DNA of 64,000 nt, from positions 2,332,501 to 2,396,500 of the forward strand of contig NZ_CP009122.1 of NCBI RefSeq assembly GCF_000803645.1. The letters are read 5' to 3'. This DNA comes from Sphingopyxis fribergensis. GTDB lineage: Bacteria; Pseudomonadota; Alphaproteobacteria; Sphingomonadales; Sphingomonadaceae. A program made the position numbers and the translations under genes. A model generated the notes under the pieces. That model made no database searches. It saw nothing but the letters and a program-made list of their open reading frames with translations, and had not been told where the DNA came from. Below are positions 46,125-59,857 of the stretch, piece by piece; position 1 is the first letter of the stretch; each line of letters opens with the position of its first letter.

Positions 46125-46721
46125 TTCGTTCGCGCGATCTACGATTTTACGGTTGTGCGGAGCGTCGAGTTTGCGTCGCAGCTCGGCGATGTGGAAGGAA
46201 ACGGTGGGCGGCGCGATCGCCAGGCGATAGGCGATCTCCTTGTTCGTCTCGCCTTGTGCCAGATAATGTAGAATGGCCATCTGGCGTGACGACAGGGCAA
46301 CCGGCGGCTGCTGAAATTTGCCGAGCGCCTCGTCGATGTGCGGAGAAATATAAACTTCACCCGCCAGTGCCGCGTCGCAGGCTGCGACAATATGATCCAA
46401 AGGATCCGATTTGCTGACGACCGCGCGCGCGCCGAGTTTGAGCGCCGAATGAATCTCGTTGAGATGCGTTTCGCCCGTCAGAATGATCACCGTCATGTCC
46501 CGCGAGCCGACGATTTCGGCGAGAACGTTGATCCCACGCACGTCGGGAAGGTTCAGATCGAGGATAACCAGGTCGACCGGCTGCGACTGGACAAAGGCAT
46601 TGACCATTGCCCCGCAATCGAGGGCGCCGACCACGGCATAGCGGTCGAGTGACGCGAAGAGGAATCGCAGCCCGCTTTGCGTGATACGGTGATCGTCCAC
46701 GATCAGAATATTGTGTTTCAT
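46110..46721 (-). CDS. Response regulator, NarL/FixJ (LuxR HTH) family
   Basis: A 203-aa regulator. The receiver at ~1-120 has the acidic pair Asp9-Asp10 (ILIVDDH), phospho-acceptor Asp55 (VILDLNLPD), the Thr of ILTGE and Lys of VVSKSDP. The LuxR-type helix-turn-helix is at ~138-200 (LSSRQMAILHYLAQGETNKEIAYRLAIAPPTVSFHIAELRRKL). ATG 46721 starts exactly at the receiver's first strand; upstream extension has no homology. No strong ribosome binding site is seen. It converges on the 7TM kinase with overlapping ends. Its targets may include the adjacent autotransporters (inference). Confidence 0.9.
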   Translation of the reverse strand: MKHNILIVDDHRITQSGLRFLFASLDRYAVVGALDCGAMVNAFVQSQPVDLVILDLNLPDVRGINVLAEIVGSRDMTVIILTGETHLNEIHSALKLGARAVVSKSDPLDHIVAACDAALAGEVYISPHIDEALGKFQQPPVALSSRQMAILHYLAQGETNKEIAYRLAIAPPTVSFHIAELRRKLDAPHNRKIVDRANELNLL

Positions 46722-46861
46722 GCCCACACCCCACCCATCCCCACTCGCTTTTCTGCGGATTATAGCATCTCTGCAACCCGAATTGATGCGGGGTGCTGCA
46801 AGAATTAGGGCCGTCGCCAGACAAACAGAGGCCCGTCGAGTGGCCTTCGACTCGTCCTTGA

Positions 46862-46898
46862 AACAAAAAGGCCCCACCCTCTTGGGTGGAGCCTTTTG
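46862..46898 (-). terminator. Strong intrinsic terminator reading leftward
   Basis: On the minus strand GGCTCCACCC, loop AAGA, GGGTGGGGCC is followed by TTTTTGTTT. It ends a transcript coming from the right (a small RNA from ~47000, or the long tail of the peroxiredoxin-ArsR operon) just before the response-regulator promoter. The plus strand also has a short T-run, so it could act both ways. Confidence 0.7.
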
Positions 46899-47003
46899 GC
46901 CTCGACCGGCCTTACAACGGCTCGAGACTGACCCTCCTGCCCTTCCCGGGTATCAGAGCGGCAGGAACTGAATTGTGGCAGCCCTCGATCGACGCGTGAT
47001 CCC
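46862..47003 (-). ncRNA. Putative structured small RNA ending at intrinsic terminator
   Basis: The stretch between ~47003 and the terminator has no gene but several stems on the minus strand: CCTGCC...GGCAGG enclosing CCCGGGAA, and AGGCCGGTCGAGGCC just before the terminator hairpin. A TTGACC at ~47020 could be a -35 box. I do not recognise a known family. Alternatively it is the 3' untranslated tail of the ArsR operon. Confidence 0.3.
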
Positions 47004-47021
47004 AAAAAGAGTTTAGGGTCA

Positions 47022-47084
47022 ACCCGAACTGAAGATTGGCCGGTTGTGGCGTGGCGAAGAATAGGCGAATTCAGACTTTCGCAT
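47022..47084 (-). CDS. Possible 20-aa small ORF (MRKSEFAYSS...)
   Basis: ATG 47084 is preceded by AGGAG at 8-nt spacing and encodes 20 residues rich in Arg, Ser and Pro ending IFSSG. It lies just upstream of the putative structured RNA. No family recognised. It could be a leader peptide or chance; the good ribosome binding site is the only support. Confidence 0.25.
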
Positions 47085-47199
47085 GATCATTCTCCTGTGG
47101 GCGAAATGGCCAAGGGGAACGAGCGAACGGCCCCTTTAGCTGTCAGCAGACCGTCTGACCGTTCGACGTCGACGATAGCTGCCAGGGGTCAGCAATATT

Positions 47200-47601
47200 T
47201 CACCCCAGGCGGGCAAAAACAGCCGCGCCTGAGGGAGGTAATTCCCGTTCCTTCTGGCTACTTTCAGAAACGATTGCCGCTGCGAGCAATTCTCCTGTCG
47301 TGACAGGTCCGGCAAAGATCGCCTCCATGCCGCGCACGCATACACCCACGCCCTCATCCGCCAGATCATAATGCACCTGTTTCGCCGAACGCCGCGTGAC
47401 GACCATATCGGCCCGGCGCAGTTCGGCTAGCTGCTGGCTGAGCGCCGGCTGTCCGATCCCCGTTGCCGCTTCGATTTCGCCCACTGTCCGCCCGCCGCGG
47501 AGCAGGCAGGAGAGGATCATCAGCCGTTGCGGCTGGGCATAGACGCGCAGCTTTTCAACGGCCTTGTCCGCGAGCGCACGGTCCTGGTAAATCGCGCTCA
47601 T
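47200..47601 (-). CDS. ArsR family regulator, BigR/SqrR-like
   Basis: A 133-aa winged-helix repressor: LRVYAQPQRLMILSCLLRGG, the recognition region IGQPALSQQLAELRRADMVVTRR, and the wing AKQVHYDL. Cys32 sits where BigR/SqrR keep their first reactive Cys. The second (Cys88, in GVGVCVRGM) is several residues earlier than in BigR, so a persulfide- or tetrasulfide-sensing dithiol is plausible but not assured. ATG 47601 overlaps the peroxiredoxin stop (ATGA), making a two-gene operon divergent from the sulfide genes. The likely operator is the palindrome at 48298-48314. Confidence 0.85.
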   Translation of the reverse strand: MSAIYQDRALADKAVEKLRVYAQPQRLMILSCLLRGGRTVGEIEAATGIGQPALSQQLAELRRADMVVTRRSAKQVHYDLADEGVGVCVRGMEAIFAGPVTTGELLAAAIVSESSQKERELPPSGAAVFARLG

Positions 47602-48230
47602 GGGGCGTCGACCGTACGGCAGAACCAGCCTAGATCGTCGCCTTCCATCATCCGCTCGGGCGGCGGAGCGAGCAACGGCTGGCCGGGACGCCAGCCTTCG
47701 GGGGCCAGCACGCTGCCGTCGGCGGTGCGCCGGAGTGCGGCGAGCGTCCTCAAAATCTCGTCGACCGAACGACCGACCGTGTGCGGATAGATGTTGATCG
47801 CGCGAACAACTCCGTCGGGATCGATGAAATAGGTCGCGCGAACCGCAGAACTGTCCTGCGCCGCATCATCGATCATGCCATAGGCGCGGCCGACCGCCAT
47901 GCTCGGATCCTCGACGATCGGAAATTCGATCGCGACGCCAAACTGCGCCTCGATCGCGCGCACCCAGGCGAGATGCGAATAGAGGCTGTCGACCGACAGC
48001 CCGAGCAAGGCGCAATCGAGCGTATCGAAGTCAGCCTGTCGCCTGGCGAAAGCGATGAACTCGGTCGTACAGACCGGTGTGAAATCGGCGGGGTGCGAGA
48101 AGAAGACGAGCCAGCGCCCGCGATAATCGGCGAGCTTCATCGCGCCTTTGGTCGATCTTGCGCTGAAAGGCGGCGCTTCATCGCCAAGCCGTAGGGAGCG
48201 CCGCCCCTCGGTATCGATCTTGTCTATCAT
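47598..48230 (-). CDS. Peroxiredoxin, Prx6-type (AhpC/TSA family)
   Basis: A 210-aa peroxidase with the active-site PADFTPVCTTE (peroxidatic Cys54) and the Prx6-like C-terminal extension (YPHTVGRSVDEILRTLAALRR). Additional cysteines occur near ~88 and close to the C-terminus (WFCRTVDAP). I chose ATG 48230 because the family's usual N-terminus (SLRLGDEAPPF) starts shortly after; ATG 48260 is an alternative. It is co-translated with the ArsR regulator and divergent from the persulfide dioxygenase-like gene, so it probably deals with peroxide or hydropersulfide stress during sulfide oxidation. Confidence 0.88.
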   Translation of the reverse strand: MIDKIDTEGRRSLRLGDEAPPFSARSTKGAMKLADYRGRWLVFFSHPADFTPVCTTEFIAFARRQADFDTLDCALLGLSVDSLYSHLAWVRAIEAQFGVAIEFPIVEDPSMAVGRAYGMIDDAAQDSSAVRATYFIDPDGVVRAINIYPHTVGRSVDEILRTLAALRRTADGSVLAPEGWRPGQPLLAPPPERMMEGDDLGWFCRTVDAP

Positions 48231-48275
48231 AAGTCTCGGTCTTTCATCCCCAAAATCCATGCCGCCGGTGCGGAC

Positions 48276-48314
48276 TTGACGCAATCTTTCTATTCGATTA
48301 CATAGTTTATGTAA
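48276..48314 (+). promoter_or_regulatory. Sigma70 promoter with overlapping palindromic ArsR operator
   Basis: TTGACG (48276-48281), a 17-bp spacer and TACATA (48299-48304) drive the sulfide operon. The -10 box lies inside a perfect inverted repeat TTACATA-GTT-TATGTAA (48298-48314). A dimeric ArsR repressor bound there would block RNA polymerase. The site also lies upstream of the divergent peroxiredoxin-ArsR operon, allowing autoregulation. Confidence 0.75.
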
Positions 48315-48336
48315 ATATGAATTCATGGAGGCAGAA

Positions 48337-49254
48337 GTGACCGATTCGACCATTGCCCACGCCAGCGCCCAAGTGATCGCAGCCAGGGCGAAACCGGCGG
48401 CGATCAAGGCCTTCTTCGACGATGCGACGAATACGGTGTCCTATGTCGTCCACGATCCCGCGACGAAGCGCGCCGCGATCATCGACAGCGTGCTCGATTT
48501 CGATCCGGCGGCGGGTCGCACGGGGTTTGCCTCGGCCGACAAGATCGTCGCCTTCGTCAAGGAGCATGACCTCGGCATCGACTGGCTGCTCGAGACGCAC
48601 GCGCATGCCGACCATCTGTCGGCGGCGCCGTACCTCCAGGAAAAGCTGGGCGGCAAAATTGCGATCGGCGAACATATCGTCACCGTTCAGAACAGCTTCG
48701 GCAAATTGTTCAACGCCGGAAGCGACTTTCAGCGCGACGGATCCGACTTCGATCATTTGTGGAAAGACGGCGACCGTTTCCAGATCGGCGAGATCGAGGT
48801 CACGGTGCTGCACGTCCCCGGCCACACGCCCGCCGACAACGCCTATGTCATCGGCGACGCCGTCTTCGTCGGCGATACGATGTTCATGCCCGACTATGGT
48901 ACCGCGCGCGCCGATTTTCCGGGCGGCGATGCCCGCCAGCTATTCCAGTCGCTGCGCCGCATCCTCAAGCTGCCGCCCGAAACGCGCCTGTTCATGTGCC
49001 ATGACTATCTGCCCGAAGGCCGCGACAATTATATCTGGGAAACGACGGTCGCCGACGAACGCGCCCATAATGTCCATGCACACGATGGCGTGACCGAAGA
49101 TGAATTCGTCGCGATGCGCGAAGCGCGCGACATCGCGTTGGCGATGCCGCGGCTGATCATGCCCTCGATCCAGGTCAACATGCGCGCCGGTCATATGCCG
49201 GCGCCCGAGGAAAACGGCATTCGTTACCTCAAGATCCCCGTGAACGCGGTATGA
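48337..49254 (+). CDS. MBL-fold persulfide dioxygenase-like protein
   Basis: A 305-aa metallo-beta-lactamase-fold enzyme of the ETHE1/SDO/Blh group. Metal ligands are visible in THAHADH (~87-93), VPGHTPAD (~150), FVGDTMF and MCHDY. In this group a mononuclear iron oxidises glutathione persulfide to sulfite. I chose GTG 48337 because GGAGG at 48327-48331 lies 5 nt before it. The in-frame ATG at 48325 overlaps that Shine-Dalgarno and has none of its own. It is first gene of the operon under the palindromic promoter, and its stop overlaps the next gene (ATGA). Confidence 0.88.
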   Translation: MTDSTIAHASAQVIAARAKPAAIKAFFDDATNTVSYVVHDPATKRAAIIDSVLDFDPAAGRTGFASADKIVAFVKEHDLGIDWLLETHAHADHLSAAPYLQEKLGGKIAIGEHIVTVQNSFGKLFNAGSDFQRDGSDFDHLWKDGDRFQIGEIEVTVLHVPGHTPADNAYVIGDAVFVGDTMFMPDYGTARADFPGGDARQLFQSLRRILKLPPETRLFMCHDYLPEGRDNYIWETTVADERAHNVHAHDGVTEDEFVAMREARDIALAMPRLIMPSIQVNMRAGHMPAPEENGIRYLKIPVNAV

Positions 49255-49691
49255 TCGCGGCCTTTCCGCAGGCGATGCCGGTCGAGGGTTTGCTCGGCGG
49301 CTTGCTCATCGGTCTGAGCGCCGCGATCATGCTGCTAGGCAACGGCCGGATCGCCGGGGTCAGCGGTCTTGCTGCACGCGCGACCGGGCTCGGAACCGGC
49401 AGCGCGCCGCGCGGCATGGCACTCGCCTTCATTATCGGCCTGCCGCTTGGTGCCGCCGTGATCGCCTTGCTGCTTGGCGGCGTCGAAATCCGCTACCCCG
49501 CGTCGATCTGGCCGATCGTCGTGGGCGGGCTGTTCGTCGGCTATGGCACCCGCCTGGGCTCGGGCTGCACCAGCGGCCATGGCGTGTGCGGCATGTCGCG
49601 GCTGTCGCTGCGCTCGATCACCGCGACCCTGTTGTTCATGGCAAGCGGTATCGCCACGGTCGCGTTGATGCGCGCGGGCGGCCTGCTGTGA
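49251..49691 (+). CDS. YeeE/YedE family membrane protein (sulfur transport half, PmpA-like)
   Basis: A 146-aa protein with four hydrophobic segments and the YeeE signature GSGCTSGHGVCGMSRLSLRS near ~103-122, whose cysteines are thought to guide thiosulfate or sulfur species through the membrane. It is half the size of full YeeE, as in the paired proteins of bigR-type operons. ATGA overlap with the MBL gene and GTGA overlap with the next gene show tight coupling. Confidence 0.88.
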   Translation: MIAAFPQAMPVEGLLGGLLIGLSAAIMLLGNGRIAGVSGLAARATGLGTGSAPRGMALAFIIGLPLGAAVIALLLGGVEIRYPASIWPIVVGGLFVGYGTRLGSGCTSGHGVCGMSRLSLRSITATLLFMASGIATVALMRAGGLL

Positions 49692-50098
49692 AGCGCGTGA
49701 TTGCGGCGCTGGCGGCGGGCGCGATATTCGGTGCGGGCCTGGCGCTTTCGGGCATGGCCGACCCCCAGCGCGTCCGCGCCTTCCTTGACATCTTCGGCGC
49801 CTGGGATCCGACGCTGGCGTTCGTCATGGGCGGCGCGCTGGCCCCGATGGCGATCGCCTGGGCGATCCAGCGTCGTATGGCGCGCCCGATCCTCGCCGGT
49901 GTTTTCGACCTTCCCCCTACCCGCGGGATCGACCGACCGCTTGCCGTCGGCGCGGTGATCTTCGGCGTCGGCTGGGGGATCAGCGGCCTCTGCCCCGGCC
50001 CCGCGATTGCGGGGCTCGCGCTGGCTCCAAGCCATGCCATCGTTGCGGTTGCCGCAATGGGCGCTGGCATGGCCCTGCACCGCCTCACCAGCCGCTGA
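49688..50098 (+). CDS. YeeE/YedE family membrane protein, second half (PmpB-like)
   Basis: A 136-aa membrane protein starting with GTG in a GTGA overlap. It has about four hydrophobic stretches and the complementary motifs GAGLALSGMADPQRVRAFLD and GWGISGLCPGPAIAGLA, the second with a conserved Cys. Together with its upstream partner it would form one YeeE-type channel for a sulfur compound. The start is fixed by the overlap; no ATG fits. Confidence 0.87.
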   Translation: MKRVIAALAAGAIFGAGLALSGMADPQRVRAFLDIFGAWDPTLAFVMGGALAPMAIAWAIQRRMARPILAGVFDLPPTRGIDRPLAVGAVIFGVGWGISGLCPGPAIAGLALAPSHAIVAVAAMGAGMALHRLTSR

Positions 50099-50124
50099 CC
50101 CCAAGCCACGCCTGGAGAAGAGAC

Positions 50125-51705
50125 ATGGATATTAGAACAATCAATTTGCAGCTCGGTGTCAGCCCGCAGATTCAGCCCGACGACGTCGCGGCGATCGTCG
50201 CAGCCGGCTATCGCTCGATCATATGCAACCGCCCCGACGGCGAGGAAGCCGGGCAGCCGCCTGCCGCTGCGATTGCCGAGGCGGCGCAACGGCATAAGAT
50301 TGGCTTTGCGCATATCCCGGTGGTTTCGGGCCAGATGACCGGGACCGACGCGATGCTGATGGCTAATGCTCTTGCCGAGTTGCCGTCACCGATACTCGCC
50401 TTCTGCCGTTCGGGCAGCCGATCGGAAAAGCTGGCTGCCATGGCGACCGCACGATCGGCGCCGCACGCCGGCGCCGACTATGACATTGTCATCGTCGGCG
50501 GCGGCAGCGCGGGGATCGCGACAGCGGCCAGTCTGCTGAAACGGAACCGCAAGCTCTCCATTGCCATTATCGAGCCCTCCGATGTCCATTATTATCAGCC
50601 TGGCTGGACAATGGTCGGCGCGGGGATATTCGACGCCGCATTCACGCGCCATACCGAACGCTCGGTCATGCCGCGCGGGGTGGACTGGATCAAAAAGGCG
50701 GCAACTGGATTTGCGCCCGATGATGATCGAGTGTTGCTGGATGACGGCAGTTCGGTGTCGTACCGCGTTCTGGTCGCGTGTCCCGGTATCAAGCTCGACT
50801 GGGATGCCATTCCAGGCCTGAGCGAAACGCTCGGCAAAAACGGCGTTACCTCCAACTACCGCTATGACCTTGCGCCCTATACCAATCGCCTCGTCAAGAA
50901 TTTGGAAGGTGGCCGGGCCCTGTTCACCCAGCCGCCGATGCCGATCAAATGTGCCGGTGCGCCCCAAAAAGCGATGTATCTGTCGTGCAATGTCTGGGAA
51001 CGCAGCGGTGTCCTCAAAGACATTGACGTCCAGTTTCACAACAGCGGCCCGGCGCTGTTCGGCGTTGGGGTCTATGTCCCGGCGCTGATGGAATATGTCG
51101 AGCGCTACAACGCACATCTGAATTTCGGATCCAAGCTGGTCGCCATCGACGGCCCCGCGAAGGTCGCGACCTTCGAGCAAAAACGCGGCGATACAGTCAC
51201 CCGCGTCGACGAACATTTCGACATGATCCATGTCGTGCCGCCGCAGGTGGCGCCCGATTTCGTTCGCAACAGTCCGCTCGCCGCGCCCAGCGGATTCATC
51301 GAGGTCGATGAAGCGACGCTCCAGCATGTCCGCTACGCCAATGTCTTCGGGCTCGGCGATGCCTGCTCGGCGTCGAACGCCAAGACGATGGCCGCAGCGC
51401 GCAAGCAGGCGCCCGTCGTTGCGGTCAATGTGCTGGCCGCGCTCGATGGCAAGGCGCCGGTCGCCGATTATGACGGCTATGGCAGCTGCCCGCTCACCGT
51501 CGAGCGCGGCAAGATCGTGCTTGCCGAATTCGGTTATGGCGGCAAGCTGCTCCCGAGTTTTCCGAACTGGCTGATCGACGGTACAAAGCCCTCGCGCCTG
51601 TCGTGGCTGCTGAAGGACACGATTCTGCCGCCGATCTATTGGCACGGTATGCTCAAGGGCCGCGAGTGGATGGTCAAGCCGCACCTGATTGCCGCGAACG
51701 GATAG
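50125..51705 (+). CDS. DUF442 sulfurtransferase/phosphatase-like domain fused to sulfide:quinone oxidoreductase
   Basis: A 526-aa two-domain protein. Residues ~1-108 match the DUF442/TIGR01244 fold with active loop CRSGSRS (Cys94). Residues ~118-526 are a flavoprotein with dinucleotide motif IVGGGSAG. The SQR cysteines fit the mitochondrial (SQOR) pattern: Cys276 in KCAGAPQK and Cys455 in DGYGSCPL, with another at Cys219. SQR oxidises sulfide to persulfide or polysulfide and reduces quinone at the membrane; the C-terminal amphipathic part (LIDGTKPSRLSWLLKDTILPP) fits membrane attachment. In bigR-type operons DUF442 is usually fused to the MBL enzyme instead. GGAGAAGAGAC precedes ATG 50125. 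The fused domain may take the persulfide from SQR (inference). Confidence 0.9.
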   Translation: MDIRTINLQLGVSPQIQPDDVAAIVAAGYRSIICNRPDGEEAGQPPAAAIAEAAQRHKIGFAHIPVVSGQMTGTDAMLMANALAELPSPILAFCRSGSRSEKLAAMATARSAPHAGADYDIVIVGGGSAGIATAASLLKRNRKLSIAIIEPSDVHYYQPGWTMVGAGIFDAAFTRHTERSVMPRGVDWIKKAATGFAPDDDRVLLDDGSSVSYRVLVACPGIKLDWDAIPGLSETLGKNGVTSNYRYDLAPYTNRLVKNLEGGRALFTQPPMPIKCAGAPQKAMYLSCNVWERSGVLKDIDVQFHNSGPALFGVGVYVPALMEYVERYNAHLNFGSKLVAIDGPAKVATFEQKRGDTVTRVDEHFDMIHVVPPQVAPDFVRNSPLAAPSGFIEVDEATLQHVRYANVFGLGDACSASNAKTMAAARKQAPVVAVNVLAALDGKAPVADYDGYGSCPLTVERGKIVLAEFGYGGKLLPSFPNWLIDGTKPSRLSWLLKDTILPPIYWHGMLKGREWMVKPHLIAANG

Positions 51706-51709
51706 CGAC

Positions 51710-52495
51710 ATGATCGACACCCTCCATTTTGCGCTCGGCGGCGTCTCGGGCGCCCTGGTTGGATTCGTGCTGGGCTTGGTCGGCGGCGGCGGGTCAATTC
51801 TGGCGGTTCCCCTGCTGCTCTATCTCGTCGGCGTGAAAGAGCCGCATGTCGCGATCGGTACCAGCGCCTTTGCGGTGGCGGCCAATGCCGCGATCGGGCT
51901 GTGGAACCATGCGCGCGCGGGAACGGTCAATTGGCGCTGCGGTTTCATCTACGGCTCGGCCGGGGTCGTCGGCGCATTTGGCGGCTCGACGCTCGGGAAG
52001 AGCATCGACGGGCACAAGCTGTTGCTACTGTTCGCGTTGCTGATGATCGTCGTCGCGATCCTGATGTTCAGGCGGCGCGGTGACGAAGGCATTGAGGGCG
52101 CCCAGTGCAGCCGCGAAAATGTCGGAAAGGTCGCCGGTTATGGGCTGGGAACTGGGGTGTTCTCAGGCTTTTTCGGGATCGGCGGCGGCTTCCTGATCGT
52201 CCCCGGCCTGGTGGCTTCAACGTCGATGCCGATCCTGCGGGCGATCGGCACCTCGCTGATCGCGGTGACCGCATTCGGCCTCACCACCTCGTTCAACTAT
52301 GCGCTGTCGGGTCTCGTCAACTGGCCGCTGGCGGGCGTCTTCATCCTCGGCGGCGTCGCGGGCAGCGCGCTAGGCACCCGCGCCTCGCGCGCACTTTCGG
52401 CCGACAAGGGCAAACTCAACACCGTCTTTGCCGCCTTTGTCATGATCGTCGCCCTCTACATGCTCTGGAAGAGCTGGGGGGAGATCGGCCTATGA
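51710..52495 (+). CDS. TauE/SafE family sulfite exporter-like protein
   Basis: A 261-aa membrane protein with ~8 hydrophobic segments and the duplicated TauE/SafE glycine motifs VGGGGSILAVPLLLYLVG (first half) and FGIGGGFLIVPGLV (second half). Family members export sulfite, sulfoacetate or related anions. Its position after the dioxygenase and SQR genes fits export of sulfite made by persulfide oxidation. ATG 51710 lies 4 nt after the SQR stop; an in-frame start at 51689 would overlap the SQR gene and is less likely. Confidence 0.9.
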   Translation: MIDTLHFALGGVSGALVGFVLGLVGGGGSILAVPLLLYLVGVKEPHVAIGTSAFAVAANAAIGLWNHARAGTVNWRCGFIYGSAGVVGAFGGSTLGKSIDGHKLLLLFALLMIVVAILMFRRRGDEGIEGAQCSRENVGKVAGYGLGTGVFSGFFGIGGGFLIVPGLVASTSMPILRAIGTSLIAVTAFGLTTSFNYALSGLVNWPLAGVFILGGVAGSALGTRASRALSADKGKLNTVFAAFVMIVALYMLWKSWGEIGL

Positions 52496-52548
52496 TCCCG
52501 GCGAAGATGTGAAAACGCGAACAGCCCGAATATCAAAAGGAAAATATC

Positions 52549-53178
52549 ATGACTCTCCACATTGGCGACATTGCGCCCGACTTCACTGCCGACACCCAGA
52601 ACGGACCGATCAGCTTTCATGAATGGGCCGGCGACAGCTGGGTCTTCCTCTTCAGCCATCCAGCCGATTTCACGCCCGTCTGCACGACCGAGATGGGCCG
52701 CACCGCCCAGCTCGCGCAGGAATTTGACAAACGCAACACCAAGCCCCTCGGCCTTTCGACCGATACCGCCGAAGAACATCGCAAGTGGATCGAAGACGTC
52801 AACGACACCCAGCACACCGACCTCAAATTCCCGATCCTGGCCGATGCCGACCTGTCGATTGCCCGGATGTACGACATGATCCACCCGCAGCAGAGCGAGA
52901 CGGCGGCGGTACGTTCGGTGTTCATCATCGACCCTGCCAAGCGCATCCGGCTGACGATGACCTATCCCATGAGCGTCGGTCGCAATTTCGACGAGATCTT
53001 GCGCGTGATCGATGCGCTGCAACTGGGCGACAAGTTCCGGATAGCGACGCCGGCCGACTGGTCGGCGGGCAAAGAGGTCATCATCCCGCCGTCGATCAAG
53101 GATGAGGAAGCGGTGACGCTGTTTCCGCAGGGCTGGACGACGCACCGGCCTTATTTGCGCACGACATTGGTCGCATAA
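52549..53178 (+). CDS. Peroxiredoxin, 1-Cys Prx6 type
   Basis: A 209-aa peroxiredoxin with PADFTPVCTTE (Cys45) as its only cysteine, so it must be recycled by an external thiol. The C-terminal extension (YPMSVGRNFDEILRVIDALQ, then PADWSAGKEVIIPP) is typical of Prx6. AAAAGGA lies 8-9 nt before ATG 52549. It is the second Prx6-type gene in this island, this time inside the main operon, between the exporter and the oxidase genes. Confidence 0.93.
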   Translation: MTLHIGDIAPDFTADTQNGPISFHEWAGDSWVFLFSHPADFTPVCTTEMGRTAQLAQEFDKRNTKPLGLSTDTAEEHRKWIEDVNDTQHTDLKFPILADADLSIARMYDMIHPQQSETAAVRSVFIIDPAKRIRLTMTYPMSVGRNFDEILRVIDALQLGDKFRIATPADWSAGKEVIIPPSIKDEEAVTLFPQGWTTHRPYLRTTLVA

Positions 53179-53207
53179 GTCAACCATGAGCCGAGAGGGG
53201 GATCGAG

Positions 53208-53648
53208 ATGTTCACACGCATTGAACGCTGGCTGGAACCAGGCACACGGTCGAAGGCGCTGATCGATCCACTTTTCCGCATATTCACCAGCCTGATCTTT
53301 ATCGTCGGCGGCCTCGGTCATTTTGGCCAGCATCGGATGATGCTCGAACGGATGAAGCAATCGCCCTGGGCGGGCATGGTCGACAGGATTGGCGATCCTT
53401 CGGTCCTGCTCTGGCTTTCGGGGATTGCCTTTGTCGTGGCGGGGTTCACACTGGCGATCGGTTTCATGACGCGGGCCTCGGCCCTGATTATATTCGTGAC
53501 ACTCGTACCGGTCACGATCACGACGCATCTGGTACCCGATCCCTCGCATGTCGGCCCATTGTTCAAGAATATCGCCATATTGGGCGCGCTCCTGCTGATC
53601 TGGGCGCGCGGACCCGGTGCCTATGCACTCGATAATAAGGGATTTTGA
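53208..53648 (+). CDS. DoxX family membrane protein
   Basis: A 146-aa protein with four membrane helices and the DoxX-like stretches FIVGGLGHFGQH, AFVVAGFTLAIGFMTRASAL and PLFKNIAILGALLLIW. DoxX relatives include thiosulfate:quinone oxidoreductase subunits and proteins supporting redox enzymes in the membrane. In this setting a role in sulfur-to-quinone electron transfer or in the oxidase complex is plausible. GGGGGA precedes ATG 53208, and the stop lies 3 nt before the CydA-like start. Confidence 0.85.
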   Translation: MFTRIERWLEPGTRSKALIDPLFRIFTSLIFIVGGLGHFGQHRMMLERMKQSPWAGMVDRIGDPSVLLWLSGIAFVVAGFTLAIGFMTRASALIIFVTLVPVTITTHLVPDPSHVGPLFKNIAILGALLLIWARGPGAYALDNKGF

Positions 53649-53651
53649 CCG

Positions 53652-55058
53652 ATGATTGAGCAAGACTGGGCCATCATTCTTGCCCGTGTGCAATTCGCCT
53701 TCACGGTCAGCTTTCACTTCCTGTTCCCGGCGTTCACGATCGGGCTGGCGAGTTTCCTAGCCGTGCTCGAAGGGCTCTGGCTCAAAACCGGCAAAGGGGT
53801 TTACGCGAATCTCTATCGCTATTGGCTCAAGATCTTTGCCGTCGTATTCGCGATGGGCGTCGTGTCGGGCATCGTCATGTCGTACCAGTTCGGCACAAAC
53901 TGGTCGGTCTTTTCCGACAGGGCCGGGCCGGTCATCGGACCGTTGATGGCCTATGAAGTGCTAACAGCCTTCTTTCTGGAGGCGGGCTTCCTCGGCGTCA
54001 TGCTATTCGGCATCAACAAGGTCGGTCGCAAGCTTCATTTTGTCGCGACACTCGCTGTAGCCGCAGGCACGTTCGTCTCCGCTTTCTGGATCTTGTCGGT
54101 CAACAGCTGGATGCAGACGCCGGTGGGTTTCGAAATGGGCGCGAACGGACAATTCCTGCCCGGCGACAGCTGGCTGACGATCGTCTTCAACCCAAGCTTT
54201 CCCTATCGCCTCGTCCACACCGTCCTGGCCGCTTATCTGACGACAGCCTTTGCGGTCGGCGCAGTGGGGGCATGGCATCTCCTGAAAGACCGGCAGAATC
54301 CCGGCGCGCGAAAGATGTTCTCGATGGCGATGTGGATGGCGGCGATCGTTGCACCGATCCAGATATTCGCTGGCGATATGCATGGCCTCAATACGCTCGA
54401 GCATCAGCCCGCCAAGGTGATGGCGATGGAAGGACATTATCAAAGCCACCCCGACGGCGCGCCGCTCATCCTGTTCGGCATCCCGAACAGCAAGGAGAAG
54501 CGCGTCGATTACGCCATCGAAATACCGAAGGCTTCGTCATTGATCCTGAAGCACGATCTGAATGCTCCCCTCGCTGGACTGGACACCATCCCCGATGCCG
54601 ACGAGCCTCCGGTCGGGATCGTCTTCTGGGCGTTCCGCATCATGGTCGGCCTGGGCTTTGCCATGCTGGGCATCGGAATGTGGAGCCTGACCGCCCGCGC
54701 CCGCAAGAAACTCTACGACTGGCCGTGGCTGCACCGCGCCGCGGTCGCGATGGGTCCGAGCGGTTTCATCGCCGTACTCGCCGGCTGGGTGACGACCGAA
54801 GTCGGACGCCAACCCTTCACCATCTATGGCCTGCTCCGGACCGTGGATAGTGCATCGCCGCTCGATGCGCCGGCGGTCGCGGCATCGCTCGTCGCCTTTG
54901 TCATCGTCTATTTCGCTGTGTTCGGGATGGGCATCTGGTATCTGCTTCACCTGATGAAAAAGCCGCCCGAAGCGCATGAAGCCGCGCTCGACGGCCTGCC
55001 GATCCGCTCCGCCGGAATCACGCCCGCCGCCGCGGTTATCGAAGGAGACATCGCATGA
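53652..55058 (+). CDS. Cytochrome bd-type quinol oxidase subunit I (CioA-like)
   Basis: A 468-aa subunit I with short Q-loop, as in the cyanide-insensitive CIO group. Visible haem and proton-path residues are His in FTVSFHFLFP, the Glu pair in MAYEVLTAFFLEAGF, His in RLVHTVLAAYL and Met in FRIMVGLG. The quinol-site stretch is GLNTLEHQPAKVMAMEGHYQ and the signature GWVTTEVGRQPF. It oxidises quinol and reduces oxygen to water without proton pumping. bd oxidases are known to keep working in sulfide and cyanide. Being in the SQR operon, it should re-oxidise the quinol SQR makes. Confidence 0.94.
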   Translation: MIEQDWAIILARVQFAFTVSFHFLFPAFTIGLASFLAVLEGLWLKTGKGVYANLYRYWLKIFAVVFAMGVVSGIVMSYQFGTNWSVFSDRAGPVIGPLMAYEVLTAFFLEAGFLGVMLFGINKVGRKLHFVATLAVAAGTFVSAFWILSVNSWMQTPVGFEMGANGQFLPGDSWLTIVFNPSFPYRLVHTVLAAYLTTAFAVGAVGAWHLLKDRQNPGARKMFSMAMWMAAIVAPIQIFAGDMHGLNTLEHQPAKVMAMEGHYQSHPDGAPLILFGIPNSKEKRVDYAIEIPKASSLILKHDLNAPLAGLDTIPDADEPPVGIVFWAFRIMVGLGFAMLGIGMWSLTARARKKLYDWPWLHRAAVAMGPSGFIAVLAGWVTTEVGRQPFTIYGLLRTVDSASPLDAPAVAASLVAFVIVYFAVFGMGIWYLLHLMKKPPEAHEAALDGLPIRSAGITPAAAVIEGDIA

Positions 55059-56053
55059 TCGATCTCACCGTCGTCTGGGCCGCGATCATCGGCTTTGCGA
55101 TCATCGCCTATGTCGTGATGGACGGCTTCGACCTTGGCATCGGCATCCTTTTTCCCTTTTTCAAGGTGGGCAAGGATCGCGATACGGCGATGAACAGCAT
55201 CGCACCGGTGTGGGACGGCAACGAAACCTGGCTGGTGATGGGGGTCGGCGGACTGCTCGCCGCCTTTCCGCTCGCCTATGCGATCATCCTCCCGGCCCTC
55301 TATGCACCGATGATAGCGATGCTGCTCGGCCTGGTATTTCGGGGCGTCGCCTTCGAATTTCGCTGGCGGGACCCGGCGCACCGCGAATTCTGGGATCGCG
55401 CGTTCACGACAGGCTCGATCGTGGCGACCTTCGCGCAGGGAATCGCGCTCGGCGCGCTTTTGCAGGGGATCACCGTCGAAGGCCGCGCCTATGCCGGCGG
55501 CTGGTGGGAATGGCTTTCGCCGTTCAGCCTGTTGACCGGCTTTGGGTTGCTGACCGGCTATGCGCTGCTTGGCGCCTGCTGGCTCAACTGGAAGACCGAA
55601 GGCGGTTTGCAACGCCAGGCAGTGACCTATGCCGGCCGCCTCGGCATCGCGTTGTTGCTGATGATCGGCGCGATCAGCCTCGCGACGCTGACCTTGGAGG
55701 CACAATATTACCAACGGTGGCTAAGCTTTCCGGGCGTATTGGCGACGGCGCAGGTGCCGCTGGCGACGCTGATCATAACCTTCCTCTTCTATCGCAGCTT
55801 GCGACTGAAAAAGGATGCGCAGCCCTTTTTCTGGGCGCTGACGCTCTTCGGTCTGTGCCTGATCGGCCTTGGTGTCTCGATCTGGCCCGACGTCATCCCC
55901 GCGCGCGTCACTATCTGGGAAGCCGCCGCTCCGCACCGCAGTCAGGTCTTCATGCTGGTCGGCGCATCGATCATGGTGCCGATCATCCTCGCCTACACCG
56001 CCTGGTCCTATTGGGTGTTCCGCGGCAAGGTGGGCGCGGATGGATATCATTGA
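55055..56053 (+). CDS. Cytochrome bd-type quinol oxidase subunit II (CioB-like)
   Basis: A 332-aa subunit II with about eight membrane helices and the family signatures DGFDLGIGILFPF, PVWDGNETWLVMGVGGLLAAFPLAYA and FRGVAFEFRWR near the N-terminus. Late WPDVIPA and TIWEAAAP stretches fit as well. It starts in an ATGA overlap with subunit I and ends in a TGATG overlap with the 35-aa subunit gene. Confidence 0.94.
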   Translation: MIDLTVVWAAIIGFAIIAYVVMDGFDLGIGILFPFFKVGKDRDTAMNSIAPVWDGNETWLVMGVGGLLAAFPLAYAIILPALYAPMIAMLLGLVFRGVAFEFRWRDPAHREFWDRAFTTGSIVATFAQGIALGALLQGITVEGRAYAGGWWEWLSPFSLLTGFGLLTGYALLGACWLNWKTEGGLQRQAVTYAGRLGIALLLMIGAISLATLTLEAQYYQRWLSFPGVLATAQVPLATLIITFLFYRSLRLKKDAQPFFWALTLFGLCLIGLGVSIWPDVIPARVTIWEAAAPHRSQVFMLVGASIMVPIILAYTAWSYWVFRGKVGADGYH

Positions 56054-56160
56054 TGACGGCGCGCCTGAAACGGATTGGCTGGTTTGTCGCAATTTGGGCC
56101 GCAAGTGTCTTGGCGCTGGCGACAGTGGGGTTGATAATCAGAGCCGTTCTGCGCGCATGA
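56053..56160 (+). CDS. DUF2474 (CydX-like) small bd oxidase subunit, 35 aa
   Basis: ATG 56053 shares its first base with the CydB-like stop (TGATG). It encodes 35 residues: a basic start MTARLKRIGWF and one membrane helix (VAIWAASVLALATVGLIIRAVL). DUF2474/CydX/CydZ peptides stabilise the haems of bd oxidases and are normally encoded exactly here. Length, position and hydrophobicity all fit. Confidence 0.85.
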   Translation: MTARLKRIGWFVAIWAASVLALATVGLIIRAVLRA

Positions 56161-56620
56161 TTGGAACCAGTGATTTGATCCCGCGATCGTGGTGCTTAGG
56201 AGCGGGTTCGCCGAGAATGGCCGTTAGGGGTCTGGCAGCCGTTGTCGTGCGGAAAGCGAAAGCAGACACCCGCCAGCACGTAATGCAAACAGGCAAGGTA
56301 CGACGCGATTCCGAGTTTCGATCTTTCGCGGTGCGCGGCGACTGATCGTAAACTGGGCTCGTCGCCCGTTGCCGGTCCGTTTTACTCGTCGGCTCCAGCG
56401 GTAGGACCGAATTGCACTGACGGAGATACGATAGTGCCGGTGATCAACGAAACCCCAGAAAATTACGCAGGTCGGGGATAAGGCCTATGTCCGCCGCATC
56501 GTCGGCAAGGCTGGTTTCGGCAATGACCAATCACGATCTGCGGCTCGAAACTGGCGATCGAGCATGCTTATTCGGGGCGATCGCCACCCCGGCGGGATGG
56601 TGCCAAGTTTTGACCGGAAA
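56161..56620. other. Gap after the sulfide operon; no gene supported
   Basis: About 460 bp without a supported gene. A short stretch near 56460-56540 reads like old coding DNA (QVGDKAYVRRIVGKAGFG) but has no start or family. No clear terminator for the cyd genes was found. Confidence 0.35.
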
Positions 56621-56705
56621 TGGTGCCCCTGGCCGGACTCGAACCAGCACTCCTTGCGGAACCGCATTTTGAGTGCGGCGCGTCTACCAATTTCACCACA
56701 GGGGC
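56621..56705 (-). tRNA. tRNA-Leu (anticodon CAA)
   Basis: Minus strand: acceptor GCCCCTG pairs with CAGGGGC, followed by discriminator A and an encoded CCA. The D-arm is TGGTGAAATTGGTAGACGCG. The anticodon stem CCGCA/TGCGG has loop CTCAAAA, giving anticodon CAA. A class II long variable arm and T-loop GGTTCGAGTCC complete it. 85 nt with CCA. Confidence 0.95.
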
Positions 56706-56759
56706 ACGGCGCTTGCAGCGCGGCGCATCCCCTAAAGCGAAGCGCCGCTTTTTGCCAAG

Positions 56760-58211
56760 CTATTTCTTGAGTTCTTTCGCCAGCGTCTTTGCCGTCGCCT
56801 TGCCATAGGGCGGCTTGAAACCCGCGAGCCCCGCGACGTCGAGCTTGGGCTGGCGGTACACCGCGCGCGCGTGGCTGAAGGTGCGGAATCCGTCGACCCC
56901 GTGATAATTGCCCATGCCCGATGGCCCGACCCCGCCGAACGGTAGATCCTCCATCGCGTTATGGAACAAGACGTCGTTGACCGTGACGCCGCCCGAGATC
57001 GTCCGCGTCAGCACGCGGTCTTCCTCGCTCTTGTCCTGCCCGAAATAATAAAGGCCGAGCGGTCGGTCGTTGGCGTTCACATAGTCGATCGCGTCGTCGA
57101 TATGCTTGTACGTCTTCACCGGCAGGATCGGCCCGAAGATTTCTTCCTGCATCACCTTCATATCGTCCGTCGGATTGCGGACGATATGGAGCGGCATCTT
57201 GTGGCCGTTCGAGCTTGCGAAATCCTCAGCCCCCGGATTGATCTCGATCACCTCGGCGCCCTTTTCGCGCGCATCGGCGAGATAGGACTGCAGCCGATCG
57301 TAATTGCGCGTGTTCACGACCGACGTGTAATCATCGTTGGCGAGCAAGGTCGGATAAAGCGCCGCCGCGCCCTTGGTGACGCGGTCGATCACCTCGCCCT
57401 CCTGATCCTCGGCCACCAGCAGATAATCGGGCGCGAGGCAGATCTGTCCGGCGTTCATCATCTTGCCGAGCGCGACGCGCTGGCCGACAAGATCCTTGTT
57501 CGCGCTGCGCCCGATAAAGGTCGGCGACTTGCCGCCGAGTTCGAGCGTCACCGGCACCAGATTGTCCGCCGCGGCGCGCATGATATGTCTGCCGACGCTC
57601 GTCGCGCCGGTGAAGATCATATGGTCGAACGCCAGCTTCGAGAAGGCGACGCCAACCTCGGAATCGCCGGTGAACACCGCCATCTCGCTCTCGTCGAAAT
57701 AGTTGGGCACCAGCCGCGCCATCAGCGCCGACACATTTTCGGTAAACTCGCTCGGCTTGATCATCGCGCGATTGCCCGCCGCGAGCACGCCCGCCATCGG
57801 GACGAAGACCATGCCGACGGGGAAATTCCACGGCGCGACGATGCCGACGACGCCCTTCGGCTGATAGACGACCTCGGCCTTGGCGCCGAGCAGGCCGAGC
57901 GGAAAGGTCGGTTTGCGCTTCTCGCCCTTCGACCAGTTCGCCATATGCTTTTTCGCATGCTTCAAGGCGCTGACCGAAGGCATGATGTCGGTCATCAGCG
58001 TCTGTTCGCGGCTGCGGTGCCCGAAATCCTCGCTCACCGCCTTGGCGAAATCCTCGGCATGGTCGACGAGCATCGCGATCGCGCGGTCGATGCGGTCGGT
58101 GCGGACGGCAAGGCTTTCAGGCATGGCGGCGGTGAAGCTTGCTTTCTGCGCCGCGAGAACCGCGTGCATGCGCGCCGTTTCGCCGGCGATATCCTTGATC
58201 GCGGTTGCCAT
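56760..58211 (-). CDS. Coniferyl-aldehyde dehydrogenase-like ALDH
   Basis: A 483-aa aldehyde dehydrogenase of the CalB/class 3-like group. It has the active-site Glu in LELGGKSP (~216), catalytic Cys in NAGQICLAPDY (~250), cofactor region APWNFPVG, EEIFGPILPV, and the C-terminal GVGPSGMGNYHGVDGFRTFSHAR typical of coniferyl-aldehyde dehydrogenases. It oxidises an aromatic or aliphatic aldehyde to the acid with NAD(P). There is no operon partner; tRNA-Leu follows. GGGGAGATTAGG lies upstream of ATG 58211. Confidence 0.9.
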   Translation of the reverse strand: MATAIKDIAGETARMHAVLAAQKASFTAAMPESLAVRTDRIDRAIAMLVDHAEDFAKAVSEDFGHRSREQTLMTDIMPSVSALKHAKKHMANWSKGEKRKPTFPLGLLGAKAEVVYQPKGVVGIVAPWNFPVGMVFVPMAGVLAAGNRAMIKPSEFTENVSALMARLVPNYFDESEMAVFTGDSEVGVAFSKLAFDHMIFTGATSVGRHIMRAAADNLVPVTLELGGKSPTFIGRSANKDLVGQRVALGKMMNAGQICLAPDYLLVAEDQEGEVIDRVTKGAAALYPTLLANDDYTSVVNTRNYDRLQSYLADAREKGAEVIEINPGAEDFASSNGHKMPLHIVRNPTDDMKVMQEEIFGPILPVKTYKHIDDAIDYVNANDRPLGLYYFGQDKSEEDRVLTRTISGGVTVNDVLFHNAMEDLPFGGVGPSGMGNYHGVDGFRTFSHARAVYRQPKLDVAGLAGFKPPYGKATAKTLAKELKK

Positions 58212-58662: not shown

Positions 58663-59853
58663 TCACGGCGCCTGTGTCCCGGATGATGACGGCGCGGGTG
58701 GCGGCGCGCGGGCGAGGTAGCGGCGTTCGAACACCTCGATGATCACCATGGTGCCGCCGCAGCACGGGCAGAGCGGCCGGGCCTCGGGCTCATTGATCGG
58801 GTCGGCGGCGGGCGGCGGCGCGACGCTGAGCAAACGGCGGGCGCGTTCGAGGTGAGCCTTGCGCTGTGCGCTGGCGAGGAGCCCATAGTGGCGGATGCGG
58901 TGGAATCCGCGCGGCAGGGCGTGGAGCAGGAAACGGCGAATGAACTCGTCAGCGGCGAGGGTCATGACCTGCTGGCGGTCGGCGCCGGCCTCGCGATAGT
59001 TTTTATAGCGGAAGGTGACGCCGGCATCGTCGAAGCGGAGGAGGCGGCTGTTCGATATCGCAACGCGGTGGGTGTAGCGCGACAGATAGGCGAGCACCGC
59101 CTCGGGCCCAGCGAACGGCGGCTTGGCATAGACCACCCAGCGCTTCTTTCTGACGGGTGAGAGATGCCGCAGGAATGCGCGCCGGTCGGCGAGCTGCGTC
59201 ATGCCGCCGAAGAAGGCGAGCTGCCCACGGTCATGGAGGGCGCGCAGCCGGGTCAGGAACAGGCGGCGGAACAGGGCGCCAAGCACGCGCACGGGCAGGA
59301 GGAAGGCCGGACGTGCGGATATCCAGCGTGTCCCATCGCGGGAGATGCCGCCGCCGGGCACGATCATGTGGATGTGCGGATGATGGGTCAGCGCCGAGCC
59401 CCAGGTGTGGAGGACGGCGGTGATACCGATCCGGGCGCCGAGGTGCCTGGGATCAGCGGCGATGGTCAGCATCGTATCGGCAGCGGCCTTGAACAGCAGG
59501 TCATAGACGAGCGCTTTGTTGTAATAGGCGATCGCGGCGACCTCGGCAGGCAGGGTGAACACGACGTGGAAGTAGCCGACCGGGAGGAGGTCGGCCTCGC
59601 GCGCTTCGAGCCAGCTGCGCGCCGCAGCGCCCTGGCACCTTGGGCAGTGCCGGTTGCGGCAGCTGTTATAGGCGATCCGCCAGTGCCCGCAGTCGGTGCA
59701 GGCCTCGACATGACCGCCGAGCGCGGCGGTGCGGCAATGTTCGATCGCCGACATGATCTTGAGCTGATGCAGGCTCAAATGCCCGGCCTGCGCGGTGCGA
59801 TACGCGGGACCAGCGCTGCGGAAGATATCGGCGACCTCGAGTGAGGCGCGCAC
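58663..59853 (-). CDS. IS91 family transposase (HUH rolling-circle type)
   Basis: A 396-aa transposase. It has an N-terminal zinc-finger region CTDCGHWRIAYNSCRNRHCPRC (~60-82, longer spans not quoted), a HUH metal site in THHPHIHMIVPGGG and the catalytic Tyr region in YLSRYTHRVAIS. A second Cys pair, LCPCCGG, lies near the C-terminus. It cleaves one strand at the element end and transposes by rolling-circle replication. GTG 59853 lies 4 nt after the recombinase stop and is preferred; an overlapping ATG at 59898 is possible. Confidence 0.9.
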   Translation of the reverse strand: MRASLEVADIFRSAGPAYRTAQAGHLSLHQLKIMSAIEHCRTAALGGHVEACTDCGHWRIAYNSCRNRHCPRCQGAAARSWLEAREADLLPVGYFHVVFTLPAEVAAIAYYNKALVYDLLFKAAADTMLTIAADPRHLGARIGITAVLHTWGSALTHHPHIHMIVPGGGISRDGTRWISARPAFLLPVRVLGALFRRLFLTRLRALHDRGQLAFFGGMTQLADRRAFLRHLSPVRKKRWVVYAKPPFAGPEAVLAYLSRYTHRVAISNSRLLRFDDAGVTFRYKNYREAGADRQQVMTLAADEFIRRFLLHALPRGFHRIRHYGLLASAQRKAHLERARRLLSVAPPPAADPINEPEARPLCPCCGGTMVIIEVFERRYLARAPPPAPSSSGTQAP

Positions 59854-59857
59854 CGCC

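What the first reader, a model, noticed from the sequence alone, without database searches (positions are those of the whole stretch)
47200..56160. Sulfide/persulfide detoxification operon wired to a cyanide-insensitive-type bd oxidase
One compact plus-strand run (48337-56160, several 4-nt overlaps, no gap over ~55 nt) encodes an MBL persulfide dioxygenase-like enzyme, a two-part YeeE channel, SQR, a sulfite exporter, a 1-Cys peroxiredoxin, DoxX and a full bd oxidase including its 35-aa subunit. A divergent ArsR and second peroxiredoxin lie upstream. Core parts resemble known bigR/sqr operons. The seamless addition of a sulfide-tolerant terminal oxidase, DoxX and two Prx6 enzymes suggests a self-contained unit: SQR makes quinol, and an oxidase that sulfide does not poison consumes it.
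Basis: partly seen in the sequence, partly recalled or inferred. Interest (0 to 1): 0.78.

Follow-up and report, generated by a model that had tools for sequence, protein, structure and literature searches.

The report
Sulfide-detoxification operon with sulfide-proof oxidase
A block of neighbouring genes carries both enzymes that break down toxic hydrogen sulfide and an oxygen-using respiratory enzyme of a type that sulfide is known not to poison; the same block recurs, with swapped parts, in many alphaproteobacteria and on plasmids, so the pairing looks like a kept design and not an accident of this genome.

Summary
From 47200 to 56160 lie ArsR and PrxA (minus strand) and, divergent, PDO, a two-part YeeE/DUF6691 channel, SQR, TauE, PrxB, DoxX, CydA, CydB and a 35-aa subunit. 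Corrections: the SQR is fused to an N-terminal sulfur-transferase (DUF442/BLH) domain; the small subunit is the CydZ/DUF2474 type of short-Q-loop bd oxidases; ArsR is BigR-like, but neither BigR sensing cysteine is in place. The linkage is real beyond this genome. Of 18 order genomes with both cydB and SQR, 14 have them within 10 kb. Of 29 class genomes with both CydA and SQR, 9 have them within 15 kb. Of 80 named SQR loci, 34 carry CydA. Two plasmids carry most of the module. A palindrome overlapping a likely -10 box in the divergent promoter is conserved and has no other site in the genome at up to 2 mismatches. Best reading: one locally repressed, mobile unit for sulfide oxidation plus sulfide-proof respiration. 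That SQR quinol goes specifically to this oxidase is inferred; 3 of 17 linked loci lack the SQR domain. New variant of a known kind.

The parts
47200..47601 (-). ArsR/SmtB-family repressor, BigR/SqrR-like fold, C-terminal GAAxFARL tail; Cys32 and Cys88
   Evidence: NF033788 over its cut-off; BigR equivalog model matched at 68.9 bits, far under its 155-bit cut-off; best solved relative Xylella BigR; AlphaFold mean pLDDT 84.5
47598..48260 (-). PrxA, 1-Cys-type peroxiredoxin, upstream of ArsR in the same direction with a 4-nt overlap, C-terminal WFC motif
   Evidence: AhpC-TSA and PRK13189 over cut-off; adjacency
48276..48304 (+). likely sigma-70-type promoter, TTGACG, 17 nt, TACATA (read by eye; not listed by the scanner, whose rule wants T at the sixth base of the -10)
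   Evidence: sequence; scan
48298..48314 (.). operator-like palindrome TTACATA GTT TATGTAA overlapping the -10
   Evidence: 0 mismatches; only site in the genome at up to 2 mismatches; conserved in relatives
48337..49254 (+). PDO, stand-alone metallo-beta-lactamase-fold persulfide dioxygenase
   Evidence: best solved matches 9g8t, 4ysk and 4efz, E 3e-111 or lower
49251..49691 (+). YeeE-type sulfur transporter, first half
   Evidence: PF04143
49688..50098 (+). YeeE/YedE-type transporter, second half (DUF6691)
   Evidence: PF20398
50125..51705 (+). fusion: N-terminal sulfur-transferase (BLH/DUF442) domain plus type II sulfide:quinone oxidoreductase
   Evidence: PF04273 and TIGR01244 over cut-off, SQR domain 119-513 against human SQOR; Cys94, Cys276, Cys455 invariant in the 9 aligned sequences
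51710..52495 (+). TauE/SafE exporter; stands where many relatives have a SulP permease
   Evidence: PF01925; SulP/STAS in relatives
52549..53178 (+). PrxB, 1-Cys peroxiredoxin
   Evidence: AhpC-TSA, 1-cysPrx_C, PRK13189 over cut-off
53208..53648 (+). DoxX family membrane protein
   Evidence: PF07681
53652..55058 (+). CydA, short-Q-loop (CIO-type) bd oxidase subunit I
   Evidence: PF01654 552 bits; 65 residues fewer than E. coli CydA in the Q-loop region
55055..56053 (+). CydB
   Evidence: PF02322 328 bits and TIGR00203 over cut-off
56053..56160 (+). CydZ-type small subunit, 35 aa
   Evidence: PF10617 39.6 bits, cut-off 26.6

Best explanation
This is one locally controlled, horizontally mobile sulfide-defence module. 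An ArsR repressor, made together with PrxA, holds a palindrome over the -10 box of the divergent promoter and so shuts off both arms. When sulfide or reactive sulfur rises, repression is relieved (the chemical signal is not known). SQR then oxidises sulfide and passes electrons to quinone; its fused sulfur-transferase domain hands the sulfane sulfur on as a persulfide; PDO oxidises the persulfide to sulfite; TauE (SulP in many relatives) exports sulfite or sulfate, and the YeeE pair moves thiosulfate or a similar sulfur species; the peroxiredoxins remove peroxide or excess sulfane sulfur. The CydAB-CydZ oxidase, co-transcribed, keeps quinol oxidation going while sulfide blocks the three heme-copper oxidases, and so gives SQR, and respiration at large, an outlet. 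Shown here: gene content, order, conservation, conserved operator-like site, recurrent linkage. Inferred: single transcript, repressor binding, sulfide induction, each enzyme's activity, the electron route.
For: Families. Order-level linkage: 14 of 18 genomes holding both cydB and type II SQR have them within 10 kb (coordinates, counted; the window's genome is one of the 14). Class level: 9 of 29 for SQR-CydA and 12 of 57 for PDO-CydA within 15 kb, short and long types together. 17 of 43 over-cut-off cydB loci, window included, have PDO in the DNA fetched around them. 34 of 80 named SQR loci have CydA. Plasmid copies. In the CydA tree the window sits in a supported clade of 21 rows, all linked, and starred branches force at least 9 changes of the linked state. 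Palindrome: at most 3 mismatches in 39 of 45 divergent loci of the window's ArsR type against 6 of 900 random stretches. One bd oxidase and three COX1-type oxidases in the genome. P. aeruginosa CIO is unaltered by high H2S (PMC10968556, abstract).
Against: No expression data. 3 of 17 linked loci have no type II SQR domain, so bd does not need SQR beside it. 4 of 18 order genomes and 20 of 29 class genomes (some in short contigs) do not have SQR and bd genes close. 46 of 80 named SQR loci show no CydA in the DNA held. The repressor lacks BigR's dithiol in register, and many relatives have no cysteine at all, so persulfide sensing is unproven. The named loci were picked by SQR, so linked rows are over-represented in the CydA tree. 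The genome-wide palindrome count (1 site) is no higher than the tool's own control, the reversed pattern (1 site); the case rests on place and conservation.
Confidence: 0.72

Rival explanations
1. The oxidase is a general bypass, not SQR's partner: it rides in the operon because any cell meeting sulfide needs a sulfide-proof oxidase for NADH- and succinate-derived quinol, whether or not SQR is there.
For: Three of 17 linked loci carry PDO and CydAB but no type II SQR domain. PDO-CydA linkage is also found (12 of 57 class genomes with both, against 9 of 29 for SQR-CydA). In L068 an ArsR is divergent from CydAB with no PDO or SQR hit in the roughly 20-kb locus.
Against: 14 of the 17 linked loci do carry SQR, with one to three genes between SQR and CydA.
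Confidence: 0.4
2. The oxidase answers another poison (cyanide, nitric oxide) or low oxygen, and its place beside sulfur genes reflects general stress clustering.
For: CIO-type oxidases protect against cyanide, NO, metals and peroxide as well as sulfide, and the C. violaceum cioRAB operon was induced by cyanide only among the stressors tested (PMC11837568 passages).
Against: Nearly every other gene in the block belongs to a family with a sulfur or thiol role, and no cyanide-specific family was hit there; linkage to PDO and SQR recurs in different families with different bd subtypes.
Confidence: 0.1
3. Chance neighbourhood or a recent insertion at a tRNA gene.
For: tRNA-Leu, an IS91-type transposase and an integrase-family gene lie downstream; G+C of 44-58 kb is about 0.58-0.64 against about 0.63-0.70 upstream.
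Against: None of 9 linked relatives scanned has a tRNA-Leu in the fetched stretch; no second copy of the tRNA 3' end in the window at up to 2 mismatches; the gene order recurs widely.
Confidence: 0.03

Closest known systems
bigR operon of Xylella and Agrobacterium (BigR, Blh and neighbours)
   Same: ArsR-type repressor of the BigR fold, sulfur-transferase domain, sulfur dioxygenase (BigR and Blh from PMC5823870, abstract start and passages); exporter and YeeE-type channel in that operon are recalled, not read
   Different: Here the sulfur-transferase domain is fused to SQR instead of to the dioxygenase; SQR, two peroxiredoxins, DoxX and a bd oxidase are added; BigR's C42/C108 pair is not in register
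Acinetobacter baumannii FisR and BigR sulfide systems with separate cydAB
   Same: PDO, SQR, TauE, YeeE, and cydAB induced by sulfide (PMC7315123 passages)
   Different: There cydAB (A1S_1433-1434) is encoded apart from the sulfide operons; here it is in the same gene run
CioAB of Pseudomonas aeruginosa and CioRAB of Chromobacterium violaceum
   Same: bd oxidase of the cyanide-insensitive kind giving sulfide tolerance, short Q-loop in CioA (PMC10968556 abstract; PMC11837568 passages)
   Different: C. violaceum cioRAB is an operon with a MarR/GbsR-type repressor and no sulfide-oxidising gene is named in the passages read
SqrR regulon of Rhodobacter capsulatus
   Same: ArsR repressor controlling SQR, sulfurtransferases and a peroxiredoxin (PMC9995734 passages)
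   Different: genes with distant locus numbers; the term searches 'cydA' and 'bd oxidase' found nothing in that paper's main text; SqrR uses a C41-C107 link, which is not in register here

Membership tests
BigR/SqrR persulfide-sensing repressor | ArsR winged-helix fold closest to BigR/SqrR | tested here: met
   Foldseek rank 1 is BigR 3pqj, E 1e-7, SqrR chains within the top 20, HlyU and SmtB close behind; phmmer best hit BigR
BigR/SqrR persulfide-sensing repressor | cysteine pair at the alpha2 and alpha5 positions of BigR C42/C108 | tested here: not met
   S31 and A97 stand there; C32 and C88 are out of register. 52 of 78 relatives without C88 have no cysteine at all
BigR/SqrR persulfide-sensing repressor | score over the NCBIfam BigR equivalog cut-off | tested here: not met
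   68.9 bits against 155
CIO-type (short-Q-loop) cytochrome bd | CydA with short Q-loop and the conserved heme-ligand positions | tested here: met
   65 residues fewer than E. coli CydA between the two aligned stretches; H22, H189 and M331 present and aligned with E. coli H19, H186, M393 (alignment; ligand numbers recalled)
CIO-type (short-Q-loop) cytochrome bd | CydZ/DUF2474 small subunit | tested here: met
   PF10617 over cut-off; link of CydZ to short-Q and Cio operons in PMC4325964 passages
CIO-type (short-Q-loop) cytochrome bd | insensitivity to cyanide and sulfide | not testable with these tools
   needs enzyme assay
Type II sulfide:quinone oxidoreductase | human-type SQR fold with redox cysteines | tested here: inconclusive
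   E 2.3e-87 to human SQOR; first redox Cys (C276) invariant; the second stands one residue off (C414) and is missing in 2 of the 9 aligned sequences (cysteine roles recalled)
Persulfide dioxygenase | homology to solved stand-alone PDO/SdoA-like enzymes | tested here: met
   9g8t, 4ysk, 4efz over nearly full length (that these are PDO/SdoA enzymes is recalled, the table names them only as MBL-fold proteins)
Blh (fused sulfur transferase-dioxygenase) | both domains in one chain | tested here: not met
   domains are in different genes: dioxygenase 48337-49254, transferase domain in 50125-51705

The most novel reading that the evidence does not exclude
The repressor of this module does not sense sulfur through the BigR/SqrR dithiol at all. 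Its near-constant partner is PrxA, encoded in overlap with it; PrxA is the sensor, reacting with peroxide or persulfide, and passes the signal to the repressor. In the window's clade that would go by a thiol relay from PrxA's C-terminal WFC cysteine to ArsR Cys88 near the dimer axis; in the cysteine-free majority by protein contact, perhaps through the conserved C-terminal GAAxFARL tail. That would make a peroxiredoxin-repressor pair a new kind of sulfur sensor.
Probability: 0.12. Interest if true: 0.78.

Novelty: new variant of a known kind. Interest (0 to 1): 0.5.

Why it matters
That bd oxidases survive sulfide is known, and sulfide is reported to raise cydAB in E. coli, M. tuberculosis and A. 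baumannii (PMC7315123 passage), but in the cases read here the two functions are encoded apart. Here oxidation of the poison and poison-proof respiration are inherited as one package, repeatedly joined in alphaproteobacteria and carried by plasmids, one of them typed conjugative. It gives a direct genetic system to ask whether SQR and a bd oxidase form a dedicated electron path. It also shows that the repressors of many such operons have lost or moved the cysteines by which their relatives are known to sense persulfide, so how these cells notice sulfide is open and easy to test.

Tried and rejected
Covariation of PrxA and ArsR cysteines: across 123 non-identical neighbouring pairs, ArsR Cys88 and PrxA WFC occur together in 40, Cys88 alone in 5, WFC alone in 1, neither in 77 (Fisher p 1.2e-25). 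On a tree of the pairs this is essentially one clade with one or a few losses, so the p-value mainly reflects shared ancestry; it is kept as a lead, not as evidence. Bookkeeping: of 205 loci searched 139 have an ArsR hit of 45 bits or more; 8 have no PrxA beside it, and 8 more were dropped as identical or too short before the count. Of the 111 ArsR places listed I fetched 80, 14 were already held, 17 were not taken.

Genomic island at tRNA-Leu: no second copy of the tRNA 3' end in the window at up to 2 mismatches. RNA elements: only the tRNA at gathering threshold in 46800-57200. Promoter and terminator scan: near chance, and it does not list the promoter read by eye. CydDC dependence: no CydC-family match over the curated cut-off in the genome (best 272.5 against 329.05 bits), which suggests but does not prove that no CydDC is present.

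Sensor geometry: the C32-C88 distance could not be measured, because no model coordinates lay in the Python box; the placing of Cys88 near the dimer axis rests on extending an SmtB match that ends at residue 85, with recalled metal-site numbers.

Print search: no held paper describing this operon turned up in the listings; the library lacks most subscription journals.
Full report
What is there. The window lies in a 5.2-Mb, two-contig genome. On the minus strand PrxA (47598-48260) and ArsR (47200-47601) overlap by 4 nt; on the plus strand PDO, a two-part YeeE/DUF6691 transporter, SQR, TauE, PrxB, DoxX, CydA, CydB and a 35-aa subunit follow with gaps of -4 to 53 nt. Three corrections matter. The SQR gene codes for a fusion of an N-terminal sulfur-transferase domain (PF04273/TIGR01244, residues 2-109) and a type II SQR (residues 119-513); many plasmid records call such genes 'bifunctional protein tyrosine phosphatase family protein/NAD(P)/FAD-dependent oxidoreductase'. 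The small oxidase subunit is PF10617, named CydZ in PMC4325964 and tied there to short-Q-loop and Cio operons (passages). The repressor is BigR-like in fold but not in its sensing cysteines (see below).

The oxidase. CydA aligns with E. coli CydA in two stretches between which E. coli has 65 more residues, so the Q-loop is short. It is the only bd oxidase found in the genome (PF02322, 1 match), beside three COX1-family oxidases. No CydC-family match passes its cut-off. Full-length SQR and PDO are likewise single in the genome at the thresholds used; one further stand-alone sulfur-transferase domain exists. Insensitivity of a CIO-type oxidase to sulfide is published for P. aeruginosa (PMC10968556, abstract), not tested here.

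Is the linkage more than chance? In 118 genomes of the order, 43 have a cydB match, 42 of them over the cut-off with 43 places. I fetched up to 20 kb around the 42 places other than the window's own (some contigs end sooner). With the window, 17 of 43 have PDO in the stretch with CydA. By coordinates (counted), 31 of 118 genomes have an SQR-domain match at E 1e-100 or better, 18 of these also have cydB, and 14 of the 18 (window's genome included) have both within 10 kb; in genomes of about 3.5 Mb well under one would be expected by chance (my estimate; related genomes are not independent). In 289 genomes of the class (compared), 29 have both CydA and SQR and 9 have them within 15 kb, in seven family codes and with short- and long-Q-loop CydA; 57 have both CydA and PDO and 12 have them within 15 kb. 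Many of the other contigs are short, so 34 is a lower bound. Copies with ArsR, PrxA, PDO, YeeE, DUF6691, SQR fusion, TauE, CydA and CydB, but without PrxB and DoxX, lie on plasmids of Sphingobium sp. WTD-1 (typed conjugative) and Novosphingobium resinovorum pSA3 (typed mobilizable).

How the unit varies. The pair ArsR-PrxA next to PDO is steady: 71 of 80 further ArsR loci have PDO within the fetched stretch of about 2.5 kb either side, and in 118 of 123 non-identical pairs PrxA and ArsR touch or overlap, by exactly 4 nt in 85. Between SQR and CydA many relatives carry a SulP permease with STAS domain where the window has TauE; L059 and L069 add a Tll0287-like gene. L117, L128, L143 and L152 carry CydAB in the opposite orientation. 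In a tree of 78 CydA proteins the window falls in a supported clade of 21, all linked, and starred branches force at least 9 changes of the linked state; the named loci and plasmids were chosen by SQR, so linked rows are over-sampled. The association was thus made or lost several times, which speaks for function. Against a fixed SQR-oxidase pair: 3 of 17 linked loci (L033, L034, L059) have no type II SQR domain.

Control. The palindrome TTACATAGTTTATGTAA (48298-48314) overlaps the -10 of a promoter read by eye (TTGACG, 17 nt, TACATA). In the window the expected number at up to 3 mismatches is 0.09. In the genome it is the only match at up to 2 mismatches; the tool's control, the reversed pattern, also gives one, so the count itself shows only that no second target is evident. 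Between divergent PrxA and PDO the site is found with at most 3 mismatches in 39 of 45 loci with the window's ArsR type, in 21 of 46 loci whose ArsR has no cysteine, and in 4 of 12 others, against 6 of 900, 3 of 920 and 0 of 240 random stretches of the same loci. In five co-directional loci of other families (L034, L037, L039, L041, L054) the best match upstream of PDO has 6 to 9 mismatches; L054 has one with 3 mismatches upstream of PrxA.

The sensor question. XfBigR senses through C42 and C108 and SqrR through C41 and C107 (passages of PMC9774590 and PMC9995734). In the alignment with BigR S31 and A97 stand at those places; the window's own cysteines are C32 and C88. Among 123 pairs, 45 have C88; of these 27 also have C32 and 15 have C88 as the only cysteine; of the 78 without C88, 52 have no cysteine and 14 have a cysteine at BigR's alpha2 place. 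So the dithiol rule fails for most of the sampled family while operon and, in part, operator stay. A C-terminal tail of the form G[AVT]AxF[AV][RKQ] is present in 98 of 123 (41 of 45 with C88, 45 of 52 without cysteine, 12 of 26 others); it is predicted with low confidence (pLDDT about 50). PrxA's C-terminal WFC cysteine goes with C88 (40 of 45, against 1 of 78), but the tree shows one clade, so this is a lead only. Published support for peroxiredoxins in sulfane-sulfur handling: PrxI of Synechococcus reduces S8 (PMC9774590 passage). Against a sensor role: a mutant in the SqrR-regulated peroxiredoxin gene rcc00528 of R. capsulatus showed wild-type-like induction (PMC9995734 passage).

Verdict. 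The exact electron route, single transcript and induction are inferred. The parts are all of known kinds; the combination, its recurrence and its plasmid carriage make a new variant. Seven paper searches listed no paper that describes it, in a library that lacks most subscription journals.

Noticed in passing
L041:4898-6631, L048:1905-3656, window 50125-51705: The second redox cysteine expected in SQR (recalled) stands one residue off in the window (C414) and is absent in two fused homologues, while the cysteine of the fused sulfur-transferase domain (C94) is invariant in 9 of 9 aligned; the transferase cysteine might take the sulfur acceptor's part.
   Followed up: no
L057 and L060, about 15000-16000: PrxA-ArsR pairs lie beside CydAB of the long-Q-loop kind and two ABC-transporter-sized genes (probably cydDC), with no PDO hit in the fetched stretch; PrxA-ArsR may control bd oxidases apart from sulfide genes.
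   Followed up: partly
L068:8050-9993: An ArsR gene without PrxA is divergent from a short-Q CydA, with no PDO or SQR hit in the locus.
   Followed up: no
L059 and L069 (G031, G100): A Tll0287-like gene (possible heme/PAS sensor, recalled) sits in the operon just before CydA or PrxB.
   Followed up: no
58663-60766: IS91-type transposase next to an integrase-family gene downstream of the operon, after a tRNA-Leu and an aldehyde dehydrogenase gene.
   Followed up: partly
21127-43649: Two very long minus-strand open frames (5180 and 1996 aa); the second has an autotransporter beta-domain at its end. The first was not scanned.
   Followed up: partly
43878-46877: A 7TMR-DISM histidine kinase gene and a convergent LuxR-type response regulator gene flank the ArsR side of the operon.
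   Followed up: no
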